Shown: positions 55,640-64,000 of the stretch, one piece after another
Layout of the letters: each line of letters starts with the position of its first letter
Position numbering within the stretch: the first letter of the stretch is position 1
DNA from: an uncultured Clostridia bacterium
Lineage (GTDB): Bacteria; Bacillota; Clostridia; Oscillospirales; Ruminococcaceae
Direction of reading: 5' to 3'
Length of the DNA: 64,000 nucleotides
Assembly (NCBI GenBank): GCA_947629905.1
Contig: CANRFM010000010.1
Location: 21,670 to 85,669, forward strand
Made by a program: the position numbers and the translations under genes
Notes under the pieces: generated by a model
Seen by the model: the letters and a program-made list of their open reading frames with translations, nothing else
Databases searched by the model: none
What the model was told of the DNA's origin: nothing

Positions 55640-56519
55640 GCTTCACACCCCCTTCGTCCGTTTCCAGCATATGGAGAATGGTTTTGGCGATGATCTCGCC
55701 GGCTGTGAAGGGGGCAGTCTTGCCGGGCAGGGAAAGCGCCCAGACGACACGCCTGCCGAGTGCCTGTGCGGCATCCCAGTCCACGCCGCCCGGCTTGGAG
55801 GCAAGGTCAAGGATGAGGGCATCCGGCTGCATGGCTTGCAGTGTTTCCGCTGTGATGACTTTAGCGGGAATGGTGTTGACAACGGCTGAAAAATCGGCTG
55901 CGCAGGCGGTTATTCTGTTCAGGGGAAGGCTCTTGCACCCATACAGTTCCGCACGTGCCCGGTCTGCTACATCCCGTGCAGCGACCGTCACCTCTGCGCC
56001 CAGCGAATGCAGTACGCCCGCTAAACGGCTGCCAATGCGCCCGAAACCAAGCACCAGAACCGGACTGCCGTGCAAGGTGCAGGGCATTTCTTCCAGCATG
56101 ATCTGTACAGCGCCCTCTGCGGTGGGAACGGCATTGCGGGTACTCATTTCTTCTTCGGCTAAGTAGTCGGAAACGGTAAAACCGGCAGCCCGGAACAGCG
56201 CTGCAGTCTGCCCGAATTTTCCGCCGAACACGGCAGCACCCGGTTTCAGCAAAGGGATCAGGTCGGTGACAGCGACCGGCTGTGTCTGGAAGGGGGCGTT
56301 CAGGTGGGTGCCGTCCTCTGAGACAGGGATCGGCAGCACCAGACAATCAAATTTAGGTAGTCCTGTATCTGTCAGAGAGGCAAGCTGCACTTCCGGAAAA
56401 GGCAGCACCTGCCGGGTAAAGCCCACAGCCCGGACTTCAAAATCCTGTGCTAAAACCCTTGCTGTGTAGCCGTATCGTAAGTCCCCGCCGGCAACGAGGA
56501 CGGTTTTCTTTGGCTGCAT
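55629..56519 (-). CDS. dpaA: Dipicolinate synthase subunit A
   Basis: VLVAGGDLRYGYTARVLAQ, VLVLGFGRIGSRLAGVLHSLGAEVTVAARD, ILDLASKPGGVDWDAAQALG; AAGGAG 9 nt before MQPKK. Confidence 0.9.
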   Translation of the reverse strand: MQPKKTVLVAGGDLRYGYTARVLAQDFEVRAVGFTRQVLPFPEVQLASLTDTGLPKFDCLVLPIPVSEDGTHLNAPFQTQPVAVTDLIPLLKPGAAVFGGKFGQTAALFRAAGFTVSDYLAEEEMSTRNAVPTAEGAVQIMLEEMPCTLHGSPVLVLGFGRIGSRLAGVLHSLGAEVTVAARDVADRARAELYGCKSLPLNRITACAADFSAVVNTIPAKVITAETLQAMQPDALILDLASKPGGVDWDAAQALGRRVVWALSLPGKTAPFTAGEIIAKTILHMLETDEGGVKHET

Positions 56520-56617
56520 ATACATCGCTCCTTTGTGAGCTTTTTGCTCATAGGCAGTATATGCGGGAGGGGGAAATGGAGTGATAGCTGAAATTTTCAA
56601 AAATTTGAAAAAAAGTC

Positions 56618-56646
56618 TTGACAAAGGCAGGAAATTGGGGTATAAT
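56618..56646 (+). promoter_or_regulatory. Promoter of rplM-rpsI
   Basis: TTGACA then TATAAT with about 17-bp spacer, followed by a roughly 130-nt leader. Confidence 0.75.
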
Positions 56647-56779
56647 AAATGGGTATGGTGTCGCAGAGTAACCGCCTGCCGATGCCCCACTGCTGCATAC
56701 CCTTGTGATTCCGGGTATCCCCGTGCCCGTGAATGGTCTGACAGCGGTTGGTTATCACTTTGAATATGGAGGAAAGATC

Positions 56780-57208
56780 ATGTCTACAACGATGCCTAAG
56801 GCTGGCGAGATCAGCCGTAACTGGTATATCTTAGATGCAGCAGACAAGCCCCTCGGCAGAGTCGCTGCACAGGCTGCTGTGCTCCTCAGAGGCAAGCACA
56901 AGCCGATTTTTGCACCGCACGTTGACTGCGGCGATCATGTTATTATCATCAACTGCGAGAAAGCCATCCTCACCGGCAAGAAGCTGGAGGAGAAGAAGTT
57001 CCGCTGGCATACCGGCTGGATCGGCGGACTGAAGGAAGTTTCCTACAAGAAGCTGATGGCTGAAAATCCGGAACGTGCTATGACGATCGCTGTGACTGGT
57101 ATGCTTCCGCACAATGCACAGGGTGCAGAGCAGAGCAGACGGCTTCGGACGTTCCGTGGTGCAGAGCACAAGCACGCTGCGCAGAAGCCGGAAGTTTATG
57201 AGTTTTAA
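56780..57208 (+). CDS. rplM: 50S ribosomal protein L13
   Basis: WYILDAADKPLGRVAAQAAVLLRGKHKPIFAPHVDCGDHVIIINCEKAILTGKK. Confidence 0.97.
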   Translation: MSTTMPKAGEISRNWYILDAADKPLGRVAAQAAVLLRGKHKPIFAPHVDCGDHVIIINCEKAILTGKKLEEKKFRWHTGWIGGLKEVSYKKLMAENPERAMTIAVTGMLPHNAQGAEQSRRLRTFRGAEHKHAAQKPEVYEF

Positions 57209-57218
57209 GGAGGGCTGA

Positions 57219-57623
57219 ATGATGTACGAACCGAAGGTTGCTTACCATTATGGTACCGGTAGAAGAAAGCATTCCGTTTCCCGTGTCAGACTGATCCCGG
57301 GCAACGGTGCGATCACGATCAACGGCAGAAATATCGATGATTATTTTGGTCTGGAAACGCTCAAGCTGATCGTTCGTCAGCCGCTGGCACTGACCAATAC
57401 ATTGGAGAAGTTTGATGTTGTCTGCACTGTAGAGGGCGGCGGTGTGACCGGGCAGGCTGGTGCGATCCGCCATGGTATTTCCCGTGCGCTGCTGCAGTAT
57501 GATGCTGAACTGCGTCCTACGCTGAAGGCTGCTGGATTCCTGACCCGTGACCCTCGTATGAAGGAAAGAAAGAAGTACGGCCTCAAGGCTGCAAGACGTG
57601 CACCGCAGTTCTCGAAGAGATAA
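57219..57623 (+). CDS. rpsI: 30S ribosomal protein S9
   Basis: [27 protein letters not shown]...[24 protein letters not shown]. Confidence 0.97.
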
Positions 57624-57711
57624 GAAATCACTTATCTGTATTGGCAAAAACTACGTGTTTTTAGTGTTTTTATCGTTTTGAGTTTCTCTGAAATATGGTG
57701 AATTCCGGACG

Positions 57712-57744
57712 GTAACTAACACGTAACTGACGGGTAACTAACAA
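57712..57744 (+). repeat. Three exact-period 11-bp direct repeats (candidate integrase arm sites)
   Basis: GTAACTAACAC GTAACTGACGG GTAACTAACAA starting at 57712, 57723, 57734. Confidence 0.7.
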
Positions 57745-57881
57745 GATTTTAAGGCATTTGCCCTTGTGGTGAGTGCCTTATTTATTAAGTTGTCGGTTTC
57801 ACTTGATTTTGGCTTAACTATATGCTATAATTAGAATATTAAGCCATAATTGTTTCATACTATTATCGGAGGTGGTATATA

Positions 57882-59216
57882 ATGCTGTTAAGGTATTCTG
57901 TTAGTAACTTCAAGTCGATCGGAAACAATATTGAATTTAGTATGCTTCCGTCTGAAGATACTTCTGATGATAGATTTCTAATAGAAATTGATACTGTTGT
58001 TGGAAAATGGAAAGTATTAAAAAGAGGAGCCTTTTTCGGTCCGAATGCATCTGGGAAAACATCTTTTATTGATTCCATATCTTATGCAAAAGATTATATT
58101 ACAAAGGGACCCAAAAATCCAAATGTAACGAAAGTAAATCAATTTAAAGGAAATATTTCTGAACTTGACGGTGTTACATCTTTCCGGTTTTTAATATATG
58201 TTGACAAACAAGTATATAACTACGGTTTTTCTTTGGATAGGTCATATGTTCATGAAGAATGGCTTGCTATATTAAATTCTTCTGGACATTTTGACTTATT
58301 ATTTGATAGAAAAACTAATCATAAACTTTTCACTAAAATAACCGTATTTGATGCTTATGAAAAACCAGGATCTGTCGAAAGAGGCTTAGCAGAATTGTTA
58401 ACCAAAAGTATTAAAGGCGAACAATCGGATCAACTGTTCTTATTTAAATTATACGAGAATGCTTCAACTCACGCAGGTATAGTGCTTTCATGGTTTAAAA
58501 CATTACAGATCATTTATCCAAACACCAAACTTCAGGCATTGCCAATAAGGATTCAAAAAGACGAACAATTTAGAGATTTTCTGTCTGAAAAGCTCCATTC
58601 TCTTGATACTGGTGTCGATAGAGTATCTACGACAGAGAATATTTTAGATCTTTCAGATTTTGAAGAGAAGTATGGTATTCCAAGTGAAGTAATTCATGAA
58701 ATTGAAGAAATTCAGAACGGAATGATAAGTTTAAACGGAAAATTTTATATTTTTAAAGAAAGCACTAAACGAAAAATAACTCTCATTCAGATCAAGTTCG
58801 AACATTCTTTAAATCGGAGAAAAGTTAATTTTGATATTGATGATGAATCAGATGGAACTCAACGTCTTCTTGATTTATTACCTATTTTATTTAGATTGGA
58901 TAATAATTCCCACAATATTATCTATATCGTAGATGAACTTGATCGTAGCCTTCATACTAAATTAACCAAATATCTTGTTAACTCGATCGGCAATGCATCG
59001 TATAATACACAGTTTTTATTTACGACACACGATGTCAACTTGCTTAGCCTAAAGAACTTCAGACAAGATGAGATATGGTTTATTGAAAAGAACAAAAACG
59101 GCGAAACAAGATTAAAGCCGTTTTCTGATTTTGATGTTAAAAACAAGGAGAATATCCTAAAGGATTATCTTACCGGAAGATTTGGAGCTGTCCCAGTAAT
59201 AAAGGAGGAAGTATAA
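57882..59216 (+). CDS. AAA-family ATPase (AAA_15/AbiLi/RloA-like)
   Basis: YSVSNFKSIGNNIEFSM; Walker A GPNASGKTS; YIVDELDRSLHTKL Walker B; FTTHDVNLLS. Confidence 0.88.
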   Translation: MLLRYSVSNFKSIGNNIEFSMLPSEDTSDDRFLIEIDTVVGKWKVLKRGAFFGPNASGKTSFIDSISYAKDYITKGPKNPNVTKVNQFKGNISELDGVTSFRFLIYVDKQVYNYGFSLDRSYVHEEWLAILNSSGHFDLLFDRKTNHKLFTKITVFDAYEKPGSVERGLAELLTKSIKGEQSDQLFLFKLYENASTHAGIVLSWFKTLQIIYPNTKLQALPIRIQKDEQFRDFLSEKLHSLDTGVDRVSTTENILDLSDFEEKYGIPSEVIHEIEEIQNGMISLNGKFYIFKESTKRKITLIQIKFEHSLNRRKVNFDIDDESDGTQRLLDLLPILFRLDNNSHNIIYIVDELDRSLHTKLTKYLVNSIGNASYNTQFLFTTHDVNLLSLKNFRQDEIWFIEKNKNGETRLKPFSDFDVKNKENILKDYLTGRFGAVPVIKEEV

Positions 59217-60011
59217 GTGGCTGCTGAGCGAATGTCCTCACTCCCTTTCTCTCCTGTACGTCCCAAGTGCAGGACAAGTGACAAATTAATCTTCATTTCA
59301 TGTGAAGGTTCGGTTACTGAATGGGAATATTTTGAGAAGATAATAAATATGGTCTTTGCAAACATCGGTTCAAAAGTAAAAGTCATAAACGTTCTTGAAG
59401 ATGCTCTCAAAAAAAGAGATAAAAATAGAACAATTGGTGAGAAAAAACAGGTGTCAAGTTCTAAACCACAGAACTTACTTGATAAAATGAACGCTTTTAA
59501 AAGTGCACATAAGGAAGATTATGATTTTGACGAACATGAACAAGATGAATTTTGGTTGATAATGGACGTTGATGATCATACTGATAAAACAATAGTTGAC
59601 AGTGAAGGCAGAAGTAATCTTGATAAATGGAATGCTGTATTAAATGAATGTCAAAATAATAAATATCAGTATGCCGTGAGCAACCCTTTCTTCGAATTGT
59701 GGCTTCTTCTTCACTTTGATGATGTGAATGAAGAAGATTATAGCTATGCTGTAACTGATTCACATTCATATGAACCGACAGACCACTACAAAATTAGATT
59801 GTCTACATTAAAAGTCCCACTCAAAAGGGATAAGCATTTTGATAGAAGATATTACAATAAATACAGTAAAGCAGCCATAAATGATGCGATTCAGCGAGCG
59901 GAAGCTCTTGATCCTGAGCCTAAATGTAACTTTCCTTCAGATTTAGGCTCAACTGTATATAGGTTATTAAAAAGTATTAAAGAAATTGATGACCAATACG
60001 AAGGCAATTGA
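59217..60011 (+). CDS. RloB-like protein (TOPRIM-like candidate nuclease)
   Basis: IFISCEGSVTEWEYFEKI, FWLIMDVDDH (DxD), SNPFFELWLLLHF; GTG start abutting the upstream stop, RBS AAAGGAGG. Confidence 0.82.
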   Translation: MAAERMSSLPFSPVRPKCRTSDKLIFISCEGSVTEWEYFEKIINMVFANIGSKVKVINVLEDALKKRDKNRTIGEKKQVSSSKPQNLLDKMNAFKSAHKEDYDFDEHEQDEFWLIMDVDDHTDKTIVDSEGRSNLDKWNAVLNECQNNKYQYAVSNPFFELWLLLHFDDVNEEDYSYAVTDSHSYEPTDHYKIRLSTLKVPLKRDKHFDRRYYNKYSKAAINDAIQRAEALDPEPKCNFPSDLGSTVYRLLKSIKEIDDQYEGN

Positions 60012-60022
60012 ATACATAGCAA

Positions 60023-60056
60023 GACCGCTGAGAGATCACTCCCTCAGCGGTTTCTT
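60023..60056. terminator. Terminator between rloB-like gene and integrase
   Basis: ACCGCTGAG-agatcactc-CTCAGCGGT followed by TTCTTT. Confidence 0.75.
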
Positions 60057-60061
60057 TATGC

Positions 60062-61111
60062 CTATATTCTGTTGATAGCCTCCAACAGTTCCTGCACATT
60101 AACGTGAGTATAGACCCTCTCGGTCAGCGACATTGCACCTGAATGACCGACAATCTTCTTTATCAGTGTAGGCGATACCTCTTTCTCAGTCATCATCGAA
60201 ATACAAGTATGACGGGTATCATGCGGCTTATGTGAGCAGCCTATCAGTTCCATAACAGGTGTCCAGTAGGAATCATAGTAGTTACGGTAAACAAAATGCT
60301 TGCCATTTGGAGTATGGAGTAAATATTCATACCCATCTTCATACCATTTTTTGAAGAACGGATAAGTCCTGTCGTGTATCGGCACAACACGAATACCGTT
60401 CTCCGTTTTGCTTTCAACAACCTTGAAATAATGCTTTTCGATATTGACGTTCTCACGTTTCAGGTCAAGCAGTTCGGACACACGCACTCCACTGTAAATC
60501 AGCATAAGTACGATCTGAGCGTAGATATTGTTTTCCTGCACCCACAAAGCATCAATCTCCTGTTTGCTGAAAGGAGAACGGTCTGTCTTGTTGGGATTCT
60601 TGTCCTTGTACTTGATAATATCCACATACTCAGAGTAGTCTTTCATGCAGATCTCATACTTCGGGGCATACTCATACATCTGACTGAACAGCACTTTCAG
60701 CTTTCGGAGCGTGGGATAATTCTTTCCACAGTTGTCCACAACACCCTGCAAATCGGTCAGTTTCAAATCCTTGAACACTCTGTCGTGCAGAGCTGTACAG
60801 CAATTATAGGATGCTTTATAAGCTTTGGCATTGCTGTCCGAGTTCGTGGGGAATTTCTCAGCCGACCACTTCTCAAAGACTTCGGCAAAAGTGATCTTGG
60901 ACGCTTCAATGTCATAAGGATTCTTATTGTAATCCATCAGCATTTCAAGTCCCTTAGCTCTGGTGGGAGCATAACCAATTGTGATATAAAGCTGCTTCCG
61001 TTTGCCTGTTTCGGTATCAATATCCCAGCCGACTGTCTTTCGGACAATGTAAGGATTACGCCTGTTGCCCGACAGCTTGTAAACAGTGCCAACGCCGTTA
61101 GCTAACTTCAT
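60062..61111 (-). CDS. int: Tyrosine site-specific integrase
   Basis: SGVRVSELLDLKRENV, PHDTRHTCISMM, KKIVGHSGAMSLTERVYTHV (R..HxxR..H..Y). Confidence 0.94.
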   Translation of the reverse strand: MKLANGVGTVYKLSGNRRNPYIVRKTVGWDIDTETGKRKQLYITIGYAPTRAKGLEMLMDYNKNPYDIEASKITFAEVFEKWSAEKFPTNSDSNAKAYKASYNCCTALHDRVFKDLKLTDLQGVVDNCGKNYPTLRKLKVLFSQMYEYAPKYEICMKDYSEYVDIIKYKDKNPNKTDRSPFSKQEIDALWVQENNIYAQIVLMLIYSGVRVSELLDLKRENVNIEKHYFKVVESKTENGIRVVPIHDRTYPFFKKWYEDGYEYLLHTPNGKHFVYRNYYDSYWTPVMELIGCSHKPHDTRHTCISMMTEKEVSPTLIKKIVGHSGAMSLTERVYTHVNVQELLEAINRI

Positions 61112-61871
61112 CTTGCTTCTCCTCCTTCAGCCGTACCACCTCACGGCAGGTGTCAACGATCTCGGAAATGCGGTCAATCTGTGTTTTCAGTTCGTCAAGA
61201 GGCATCGGGGCTTCTTCCTGTTCGTCCTTGTTAACAGTGAACTTTTTGAAATCGCTGATTATAGACGATGTAAAGCCTTTGACCGTCATAACAAGATAAT
61301 TCTCGAATTGCAGATAATCGCTGATAGATATATAGCACATTGTCTTTCCAGCCTTTTTAAGAGCTACAACATATCCCTCTGAAAATAACTGCAACAGTTC
61401 AGGCGGCATATCATATACAGGCTGTCCCTCGTCCGTCTGAGATAGAACGAAGTAGTCGCTCCAGACATCACGGGAAGCCTTGATTTCCAGTGTGTAGCCA
61501 AGATTAGCAATCACTGTTGAAAGTACATTCTGATTGCGCTTTCCAACGAATGTGGCAGTATCGAGCAGCACAGCCTGCGATTTCAGACTATCGAAACTAT
61601 CTCCCATAAGATGATTGAACTTCTGCAAGGCTTCATAGAATTCCTCATTGTAGCTGTCAGCATAGACAACTATGTCTTTGACGGGCACATCATAGAATTC
61701 AGCAAGCATATTGATGTAGCTGCTTGTAATCGTAGCCTTTCCGTGTTCGATACCGTTGTAATGTGTACGTGAAGCACCGAGGGCTTCTGCAAGCTGATTC
61801 TGCGACAAACCACGCTCGGTACGCAAAGCAATAATCTTTTCTTTCGTTTTTTCCTGATCTATTTTTTTCAT
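61098..61871 (-). CDS. XRE-family transcriptional regulator (CI-like)
   Basis: IIALRTERGLSQNQLAEALGASRTHYNGIEHGKATITSSYINMLAEFYDV; overlaps integrase start by 14 nt. Confidence 0.88.
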   Translation of the reverse strand: MKKIDQEKTKEKIIALRTERGLSQNQLAEALGASRTHYNGIEHGKATITSSYINMLAEFYDVPVKDIVVYADSYNEEFYEALQKFNHLMGDSFDSLKSQAVLLDTATFVGKRNQNVLSTVIANLGYTLEIKASRDVWSDYFVLSQTDEGQPVYDMPPELLQLFSEGYVVALKKAGKTMCYISISDYLQFENYLVMTVKGFTSSIISDFKKFTVNKDEQEEAPMPLDELKTQIDRISEIVDTCREVVRLKEEKQDEVS

Positions 61872-61950
61872 TTCTACTCCTCTTCTTATAAATTGTGAAT
61901 AAATTATGGATGTACTATTTTTACCAAGACAATTGAAATGTCTGGAAGTT

Positions 61951-61970
61951 TATGATACAATTATATCATA
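61951..61970. promoter_or_regulatory. Operator candidate in divergent control region
   Basis: TATGATA-caatta-TATCATA inverted repeat overlapping the minus-strand -10. Confidence 0.65.
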
Positions 61971-61988
61971 GACTTAGAGAGTTGTCAA
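61960..61988 (-). promoter_or_regulatory. Promoter of XRE regulator-integrase unit
   Basis: Minus strand TTGACA (61988-61983), 17 bp, TATAAT (61965-61960). Confidence 0.75.
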
Positions 61989-62046
61989 GAGATTTTCTGA
62001 GTTTTTTCAAACGATTAGAGAAAAATACATAATCGGAGGTAACAAA

Positions 62047-62298
62047 ATGAATGTTTTTACTTCTCTGCCGGCTTTTACAGGCAGAAATGTACCGATCAAG
62101 GAGATCGCACAGGCAACAGGCAAAGACCCACAATACATCAGGATAGGTTTACAGAAGGGTATATTCCGCTTCGGATATGCTTTCAAAAAGGACGGCTCAA
62201 GCGAATATAACTATCTTTGTCCTGACAAGAAAGTATGGGAGGATTTAGGCTATTTCAGGGCAGAAACGGAGGTCAGCAATGCGGGAAATGACGAATGA
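62047..62298 (+). CDS. Excisionase/MerR-like small DNA-binding protein
   Basis: VPIKEIAQATGKDPQYIRIGLQKGIFRFGYAFKKDGSSEYNYLCPDKKVWE. Confidence 0.65.
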   Translation: MNVFTSLPAFTGRNVPIKEIAQATGKDPQYIRIGLQKGIFRFGYAFKKDGSSEYNYLCPDKKVWEDLGYFRAETEVSNAGNDE

Positions 62299-63808
62299 TA
62301 CTGCGAAGCTGATTGCGGAAGTCAACAATGGGGATGATCTCCCCATTGTACCTGACGAGGAGGTACAGTCCGAAGGGCGGGAGAAATTCGATCTTGATAA
62401 GCCCAAAAAAGAACTGTCGGCGGTAACGTATGATGATATACTTAACAGCACCGCATCATATGAAAAGATCCTCACTCTGCACGATGAGTTTGCAATATCG
62501 CAGTATATTACAGCGTTCAGACAGATAGCCAAGAAGTTTAAGCTGACAGCGGATTTTGATAGCCTTGTTGCTCCGTATAAGGACAAGGCGTTACGGCAGC
62601 TCAAAGAAGCGGAGCATCAGGAAAAGAAAGAGGAGAAAAGCAAATACCCGAAGTGGTGGGACGGCTCTCAGGTCAACGAGGACGTATTCTGCACTGAGTT
62701 TCTCTCACAGCACACGCTGTACTGTATCAATGGGATGTTCTATGACATAGACGGTGAATACCTTATCTCAGAGCTGAGCAAGGTCATATACGAGCGTATC
62801 AAGCCCTATGTCATAAAGAACGTGGCAGATCGTACCAGACGGCTGGTTGAAGCTATGAAGATAAAGTGCTATTCTCCTGCACCTCAGCCAAATGAAAAGA
62901 CTATACACCTGAAGAATGGAACATTGCGTCTGTTACAGGGACGATTTGTATTCTCTCCGGACAAGCAGTTCATTACGAATCGCTTGGGTGTTGAATATCT
63001 TTCCGATGCACCAAAGCCTGAACGTTGGCTCAGGTTCGTGCAGGAACTTCTGAATGAACAGGATGTGCTGACCCTACAAGAGTATATGGGGTATCTGCTG
63101 ATTCCGTCTACAAGAGCGCAGAAAATGCTGATGATCTCAGGAAACGGCGGCGAAGGAAAATCCCGTGTCGGAAAGGTGTTATTTGAGATTATGGGGAGTA
63201 AGAATGCCGTCAGCGGAAGTATATCATCTCTGGACAATGGAGCTGCCGCCCGATTCAACAAGGTCAAGCTCCTCAGCAAGCTCTGTATGATAGATGATGA
63301 TATGGATATGTCTGCACTTGAAAAGACAGAGTTTCTTAAACAGCTTATCACAGCGGAGATTCCTATGGAGATTGAGCCGAAAGGCAGTCCTTCTTTTCAA
63401 GCGTTATTGTACACAAGAGTTATCGCTTTCGGAAATAATCCGATTTCTGCACTTTACGACCGCAGCGAAGGTTTCTTTCGCAGGCAGATGATTCTTGTAG
63501 CAAAGCCCGTTCCTAAAGAACGTAAAACAGACAAGCACCTGACAGAAAAACTACTTGCTGAAAAGGAAGGAATACTCCTTTGGTGCATCGAGGGATTGGA
63601 GCGTTTGATAGCGGATGATTTTGAGTTTACCATAAGCGATCAGGCGAAAGAAAATATCAGACGAAGTGAGCAAGATATATCAGGACTTACACACTTACAC
63701 ATTTCTTTTCTTATTATAGATATGGAAAATATCGCAGATATTTTTTCTTTTTTGATGATAAAACTTCGGACAGGTATATTCCTGTGTGTGAAGTGTGTAA
63801 CCGTGTAG
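62279..63808 (+). CDS. Phage/plasmid primase-helicase, P4/D5-like C-terminal domain (3' end possibly truncated)
   Basis: MLMISGNGGEGKSRVGKVLFEIMG, CMIDDDMDMSALEKTEFLKQLITAEIPMEIEPKG, RVIAFGNNPISALYDRSEGFFRRQMIL. Confidence 0.82.
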   Translation: MREMTNDTAKLIAEVNNGDDLPIVPDEEVQSEGREKFDLDKPKKELSAVTYDDILNSTASYEKILTLHDEFAISQYITAFRQIAKKFKLTADFDSLVAPYKDKALRQLKEAEHQEKKEEKSKYPKWWDGSQVNEDVFCTEFLSQHTLYCINGMFYDIDGEYLISELSKVIYERIKPYVIKNVADRTRRLVEAMKIKCYSPAPQPNEKTIHLKNGTLRLLQGRFVFSPDKQFITNRLGVEYLSDAPKPERWLRFVQELLNEQDVLTLQEYMGYLLIPSTRAQKMLMISGNGGEGKSRVGKVLFEIMGSKNAVSGSISSLDNGAAARFNKVKLLSKLCMIDDDMDMSALEKTEFLKQLITAEIPMEIEPKGSPSFQALLYTRVIAFGNNPISALYDRSEGFFRRQMILVAKPVPKERKTDKHLTEKLLAEKEGILLWCIEGLERLIADDFEFTISDQAKENIRRSEQDISGLTHLHISFLIIDMENIADIFSFLMIKLRTGIFLCVKCVTV

Positions 63809-64000
63809 ATCGGATAGCTGCCTGAAAAGAAAAATGACAGAGCAGACAGGCATAAAACTGCCTGGAATTCCCTTTTGAAAAGAGAAAAATGAAACTACGC
63901 CTGCAGGGGCGTTTGGAAGAGTAGCAAGCACGGTATGTCGTATTACGATTATGGAAAATCGTAAACCACATACGGCTTGTCAGGGGAAATTTCCCCTAAG

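What the first reader, a model, noticed from the sequence alone, without database searches (positions are those of the whole stretch)
57882..60011. AAA ATPase + RloB two-gene cassette in an integrative element: AbiL/PARIS-like defense candidate
Seen: an AAA_15-type ATPase (GPNASGKTS Walker A) whose stop abuts the GTG start of an RloB-like gene, so the two are probably translationally coupled. The second protein has CEGSVTEWEYF plus a downstream DVDD, which fits a TOPRIM-like Glu + DxD layout. Known (from memory): Lactococcus AbiL pairs an ATPase with an RloB-domain protein, and PARIS pairs AriA (AAA15) with AriB (DUF4435). Inference: this is an abortive-infection module, carried between the integrase and the chromosome junction where cargo defense genes often sit.
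Basis: partly seen in the sequence, partly recalled or inferred. Interest (0 to 1): 0.78.

Follow-up and report, generated by a model that had tools for sequence, protein, structure and literature searches.

The report
AbiL anti-phage pair in element slot
This is a two-gene AbiL-type anti-phage module (a predicted ATPase sensor plus a predicted toxic nuclease) that sits in a small mobile element, in a slot where relatives of that element carry other phage-defence genes instead.

Summary
57882-59216 encodes an SMC/OLD-type ABC ATPase (PADLOC AbiLi, E 2e-73) and 59217-60011 an RloB protein (Pfam RloB E 2e-32; PADLOC AbiLii E 5e-22), stop codon against GTG. It is a new member of the known AbiL family, not PARIS (no DUF4435). 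From published work on relatives, the likely mechanism is an ATPase that restrains, and on infection releases, a Toprim-like nuclease. That is untested here, and my fold search did not confirm the Toprim fold.

The less expected result is the address. The pair lies in an rpsI-integrated mobile element (about 13 kb in complete relatives), between left arm repeats and integrase. Homology to 13 of 14 related elements stops at 57758-57790 and, where contigs reach, resumes at 60011-60063, exactly around the operon. Of 20 such rpsI insertions, 18 slots are occupied: seven hold modules with firm defence-model matches (AbiL, TIR/ThsB, two kinds of restriction-modification, dCTP deaminase), four an ATPase plus PD-(D/E)xK-like protein, seven a cyclase-like protein. 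In an R. flavefaciens MAG the pair remains beside rpsI without an integrase. rpsI is a known hotspot; I found no description of this slot.

The parts
57219..57623 (+). rpsI (ribosomal protein S9), integration target; its last codons TCG AAG AGA TAA form the left attachment core
   Evidence: Nucleotide homology to congeners stops at the rpsI stop codon or within a few bases of it; same core repeated at the right end of complete relatives L085 and L099
57612..57623 (+). attL core TCGAAGAGATAA (12 bp)
   Evidence: TC[A/G]AAGAGATAA at both ends of related elements
57711..57743 (+). left arm-type repeats, three copies of a GTAACTAACA-like unit at 11-bp period (GGTAACTAACACGTAACTGACGGGTAACTAACA)
   Evidence: reversed-pattern control found 0 matches
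57750..57780 (+). intrinsic-terminator-like hairpin between the left end and the operon
   Evidence: number found in region not above shuffles; similar hairpin present in relatives
57803..57831 (+). promoter-like site TTGATT-17-TATAAT with TG extension
   Evidence: consensus match only, number in region not above shuffles; sequence shared with L003
57882..59216 (+). abiLi: SMC/OLD-type ABC ATPase, presumed sensor/antitoxin; variable middle region residues 148-255
59203..59208 (+). ribosome-binding site AGGAGG for abiLii inside the abiLi 3' end
59217..60011 (+). abiLii: RloB protein, presumed Toprim-like nuclease effector (E30, D117, D119)
60024..60051 (.). inverted repeat (ACCGCTGAG...CTCAGCGGT) between the convergent abiLii and int genes, terminator-like
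   Evidence: Direct reading; an equivalent hairpin is present in L003, L006, L055, L148
60062..61111 (-). tyrosine integrase of the rpsI element
   Evidence: Pfam Phage_integrase 1.4e-18; 83-92% identical homologues at rpsI
61098..61871 (-). XRE-type regulator of the element
62047..62298 (+). small conserved element protein (83 aa)
   Evidence: Homologous ORF at the same place in L085, L099, L148
62279..63808 (+). D5_N/DUF5906 replication primase-helicase; frame ends earlier than in relatives

Best explanation
The pair is an AbiL abortive-infection module carried as exchangeable cargo in an rpsI-targeting mobile element. Shown here: family membership by profile, operon layout, conserved ATPase and EG..TE/DxD motifs, and the position in a cargo slot between left arm repeats and integrase. 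Inferred from relatives: AbiLi, an ABC-type ATPase, forms an oligomer that keeps AbiLii inactive; a phage product or infection signal, read by the variable middle of AbiLi, releases or activates AbiLii; AbiLii, a metal-dependent Toprim-like nuclease, then cleaves an essential nucleic acid (by analogy with AriB, a tRNA) and stops growth before phage are released. The element gains by protecting its host.
For: PADLOC AbiLi 2.1e-73 over residues 1-442 and AbiLii 5e-22; Pfam RloB 2.2e-32. An ATPase homologue lies beside RloB in all class-wide RloB loci fetched, L009-L038, and a Walker A ORF directly upstream in 18 of 22 viral-collection loci, the other 4 being cut at a contig edge. AbiLi model pLDDT 84 matches Rad50 (1e-11), OLD (6p74, 1.7e-10) and PtuA (1.5e-9). 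RloB profile aligns in register with OLD Toprim, EG..TE to EG.TE and DxD to DxD, pairwise E 0.0011 against 0.15-0.22 for two unrelated profiles. AbiLi residues 148-255 evolve fastest (dN 0.67-0.76 against 0.13-0.17 in residues 1-75, versus L003 and L004). Purifying selection, dN/dS 0.09-0.25 where measurable. Patchy distribution: 3 of 299 family genomes including its own, none of the 4 congeners sampled. Slot data. Literature: a C. algidicarnis TOPRIM_OLD D44 (RloB) toxin validated with its AAA partner in E. coli neutralisation assays (PMC10440598); F. nucleatum AbiLii toxic in E. coli (PMC3985639); AriA/AriB mechanism (PMC12409363, PMC11455837).
Against: Foldseek of the AbiLii model (pLDDT 74) found no significant match and no Toprim protein in the list. 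F. nucleatum AbiLi did not neutralise AbiLii, and L. lactis AbiLii was not toxic in E. coli (PMC3985639), so the restraint model is not universal. PMC10440598 got no convincing AAA-toxin interface from AlphaFold2. Neither the nucleic-acid target nor any phage phenotype was tested here.
Confidence: 0.72

Rival explanations
1. It is an element-addiction toxin-antitoxin pair: AbiLii poisons cells that lose the element, AbiLi neutralises it, and phage defence is secondary or absent.
For: An AAA-RloB pair behaves as a toxin-antitoxin pair in E. coli (PMC10440598); it sits on a mobile element.
Against: The same slot in related elements holds restriction-modification, TIR/ThsB and dCTP deaminase modules, which fit defence better than one shared addiction role. 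The pair persists in L003 with no integrase nearby and no relative of this integrase in that genome, where addiction to the element no longer applies.
Confidence: 0.12
2. It is a PARIS system with a diverged AriB.
For: Same two-gene logic; the ATPase hits the generic PADLOC AriA models (1.8e-24).
Against: No DUF4435 in AbiLii at E<=1; the AbiLi model scores far higher than any AriA model (245 versus 85 bits); RloB-to-DUF4435 profile comparison was weak (E 0.048).
Confidence: 0.03
3. It acts on invading DNA (OLD/Gabija/MksG-like) rather than on host RNA, so that defence need not be abortive.
For: AbiLi belongs to the SMC/Rad50/OLD ATPase fold, many of whose relatives act on DNA; the RloB active-site motif aligns best with OLD-type Toprim.
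Against: RloB-type toxins are toxic to uninfected E. coli when expressed alone in two of the published cases (PMC10440598, PMC3985639), which suggests a host target; host DNA remains possible.
Confidence: 0.25

Closest known systems
AbiL of Lactococcus lactis (AbiLi/AbiLii)
   Same: Two-gene operon, ATPase then RloB-domain protein; best PADLOC models for both proteins.
   Different: Chromosomal rpsI-integrated element in a Ruminococcus-like host rather than a plasmid; the close homologues (264-265 aa) carry extra sequence around residues 50-80 and 168-206 relative to most RloB proteins. L. lactis AbiLii was not toxic in E. coli (PMC3985639).
C. algidicarnis TOPRIM_OLD D44 : AAA D29 (PMC10440598)
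   Same: RloB-type toxin with an AAA/ABC ATPase partner, validated as a toxin-antitoxin pair in E. coli.
   Different: Species and context; no phage test of that pair is described in the text read.
PARIS (AriA/AriB)
   Same: ABC ATPase plus Toprim effector in two genes.
   Different: Effector family differs: RloB here, DUF4435 in AriB.
rpsI-targeting islands (E. faecium esp island, S. suis rpsI IMEs)
   Same: Site-specific integration at the 3' end of rpsI; S. suis rpsI IMEs carry an orphan methylase (PMC2858755, PMC12479173).
   Different: Different host group and a defined one-to-two-gene slot between left arm sites and int; integrase relationship to those islands was not tested.

Membership tests
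AbiL | AbiLi-type ATPase | tested here: met
   PADLOC AbiLi 2.1e-73, residues 1-442; Walker A, ESDGTQ signature, Walker B DE, switch His conserved
AbiL | RloB-domain AbiLii immediately downstream | tested here: met
   Pfam RloB 2.2e-32, PADLOC AbiLii 5e-22; adjacent genes
AbiL | abortive infection of phage | not testable with these tools
   Needs phage challenge
Toprim/OLD nuclease | Glu plus DxD in Toprim register | tested here: met
   E30, D117, D119 conserved; in-register alignment to OLD Toprim, E 0.0011 for one comparison
Toprim/OLD nuclease | Toprim fold | tested here: inconclusive
   Strand/helix order of the model is compatible, but Foldseek found no significant match and listed no Toprim; model pLDDT only 74
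PARIS | AriB DUF4435 effector | tested here: not met
   No DUF4435 hit; profile comparison E 0.048
PARIS | AriA ATPase | tested here: inconclusive
   Generic AriA models hit at 1.8e-24, far below AbiLi
rpsI-integrated mobilizable element | tyrosine integrase and att repeats at rpsI | tested here: met
   Integrase, attL core and arm repeats in window; both ends present in relatives L085, L099
rpsI-integrated mobilizable element | mobilization genes | tested here: inconclusive
   NikA/MobC-like protein in relatives L085 and L148; window contig ends before that region; no relaxase was identified in the stretches read

The most novel reading that the evidence does not exclude
An undescribed family of rpsI-targeting elements in Ruminococcus-type bacteria has a dedicated defence-cargo slot between its left recombination site and its integrase, flanked by terminator-like hairpins. 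Modules are swapped there as one- or two-gene cassettes, and some remain in the chromosome after the element decays. The undescribed occupants (a cyclase-like 362-373 aa protein, 7 of 20 loci; an ATPase plus PD-(D/E)xK-like pair, 4 of 20) would then be new anti-phage systems.
Probability: 0.55. Interest if true: 0.62.

Novelty: new member of a known kind. Interest (0 to 1): 0.48.

Why it matters
To my knowledge AbiL's target and trigger are not established, and this locus supplies close natural variants whose ATPase middle has diverged more than the effector, useful for mapping the sensor. More broadly, the slot gives a sequence signature (arm repeats next to rpsI) for collecting defence modules in rumen and gut bacteria, and it nominates two untested candidates by position.

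Tried and rejected
PARIS membership: rejected on the missing DUF4435 domain. Fold search for Toprim: no match, reported as inconclusive. First hhalign run with realignment gave no usable alignment; repeated without realignment. RloB relatives in phage records: none; in plasmids only two distant ones. Viral-contig scans with the close RloB alignment and with the integrase found no relative. PDB sequence search for AbiLii: nothing meaningful. Rfam: no RNA family in 56500-64000. tRNA genes as integration target: none in the window. An operator at the inverted repeat around the -10 box was considered and dropped because it is imperfect in L003 and absent in L004 (direct reading). PDB profile searches for the cyclase-like and PD-(D/E)xK-like cargo: nothing.

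Full report
Observation. The first stop (TAA 59214-59216) is followed directly by the GTG start at 59217, with AGGAGG 8 nt upstream inside the first gene. In homologues the spacing ranges from overlaps to short gaps, so coupling is likely but not measured.

Identity. AbiLi: PADLOC AbiLi 2.1e-73, Pfam AAA_21 2.3e-26. AbiLii: Pfam RloB 2.2e-32, PADLOC AbiLii 5e-22. AbiLi's predicted model (pLDDT 84) matches Rad50, SMC, OLD and PtuA heads, so it is an ABC-type ATPase. AbiLii's model (pLDDT 74) has a compatible strand order, with E30 after the first strand and D117/D119 at the third, but Foldseek found nothing significant. A 30-sequence RloB profile aligned in register with OLD Toprim domains at E 0.0011 for a single comparison, against 0.15-0.22 for two unrelated profiles; with the smaller 17-sequence profile the match was weaker (E 0.043, 9 columns). 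I treat Toprim as likely, resting partly on the published HHpred statement (PMC10440598).

Mechanism. In PMC10440598 a C. algidicarnis RloB-type toxin with its AAA partner is among the validated toxin-antitoxin pairs. In PMC3985639 F. nucleatum AbiLii was toxic but not neutralised by its AbiLi, and L. lactis AbiLii was not toxic in E. coli. AriA/AriB gives the best-understood analogue: hexameric ATPase, sequestered Toprim tRNase, release on trigger. Within AbiLi, residues 148-255 are the most diverged (dN 0.67 and 0.76 to L003 and L004) while residues 1-75 are conserved (0.17 and 0.13). That is what a variable sensor would show, though relaxed constraint is an alternative. dN/dS was 0.09-0.25 in the comparisons where dS could be estimated; several dS values are near saturation. 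AbiLii dS between window and L003 (0.64) is lower than rpsI dS (1.82), consistent with horizontal transfer after the hosts diverged.

Element. Congeners show other tyrosine integrases directly after rpsI in 4 of 11 loci read, so the site is a hotspot here as it is in Enterococcus and Streptococcus (PMC2858755, PMC12479173). The window's left end has three arm-type repeats at 57711-57743. Patterns for them, with up to 3 mismatches, hit 7 of 398 family genomes and 14 of 125 genomes of the genus of L003, with no control hits. Two relatives, L085 and L099, have both ends: core TC[A/G]AAGAGATAA and right arm repeats, element about 13 kb.

Slot. Blastn of the window against 14 related elements is the key result. 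Left homology ends between 57758 and 57790 in 13 of them and at 57744 in the empty L087; right homology resumes at 60011-60063 in the 13 whose contig reaches it (L086 ends before). The operon fills that gap. Backbones flanking unrelated cargo are 85-87% identical in DNA over about 3.6 kb (L085, L099, L148). Of 20 rpsI loci, 18 are occupied: AbiL 1; PDC-M50A plus ThsB 1; C5 methylase plus unknown partner 2; D12 methylase plus HNH 2; dCTP deaminase 1 (3e-124); AAA_15 ATPase plus PD-(D/E)xK-like 4; cyclase-like 7; empty 2 (L087, L143). Membership of some loci in a class was assigned by phmmer similarity to one scanned representative. As a small control, ten chromosomal neighbours gave one hit, a local kinase-type match at 4e-9. 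The control is small, the loci are not phylogenetically independent, and 11 of 18 occupants lack a firm defence assignment, so 'defence slot' is well supported as a tendency and not proved as a rule.

Cargo without element. L003 (R. flavefaciens MAG) has the pair between rpsI and rnhA with no integrase between them, and no relative of this integrase in that genome. L006 has the AbiLii 3' end, the hairpin and a 51-residue integrase stub before other genes. G920 (L146) has an intact cyclase-like gene and a truncated integrase. These are draft assemblies, many of them metagenomic, so misassembly in single cases is possible.

Limits. No experiment was run, and defence has not been tested for this locus. 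The window contig ends inside the element. I searched open-access papers only for a prior description of this slot; absence there is not proof of novelty.

Noticed in passing
L140, L141, L146, L148, L149, L101 (intact) and L142 (truncated): A 362-373 aa protein with AYFD(I/T)LGY and FSDN motifs occupies the same slot in 7 of 20 rpsI elements; weak Guanylate_cyc match (0.0016, below cut-off), no PADLOC hit. Candidate new defence gene by position only.
   Followed up: partly
L086, L100, L144, L150: AAA_15 ATPase plus 214-232 aa partner with a D-x13-ExK motif (VDAVC...NEWFLIEFKN); weak HEC-02 and SduA_C matches. Candidate ATPase plus PD-(D/E)xK nuclease pair.
   Followed up: partly
L085:6300-12450: Second cargo region inside the element: NikA-like mobilization protein, AlwI-type restriction-modification, two TIR/ThsB-like proteins and a second protein resembling the PDC-M50A-like one.
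   Followed up: partly
L099 near 14113 (reverse-complement coordinates): An extra copy of the attachment core TTCTCGAAGAGATAA beyond attR, suggesting an earlier or tandem integration.
   Followed up: no
L097 (G281) around 1072-1230: Left end of the element with the att core but no rpsI gene upstream, with a CPCC-type protein in the slot: secondary integration site or rearrangement.
   Followed up: no
L004:8872-14510: The AbiL pair next to rpsI is followed by an XRE regulator, an Eco57I-type methylase and a ResIII/T5orf172 protein, a possible second defence system.
   Followed up: no
window 63669-63937: Window and relatives L085, L099, L148 match past the primase with an extra stretch of about 0.3 kb in the relatives, so the window element seems to lack it and its primase frame ends early.
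   Followed up: no
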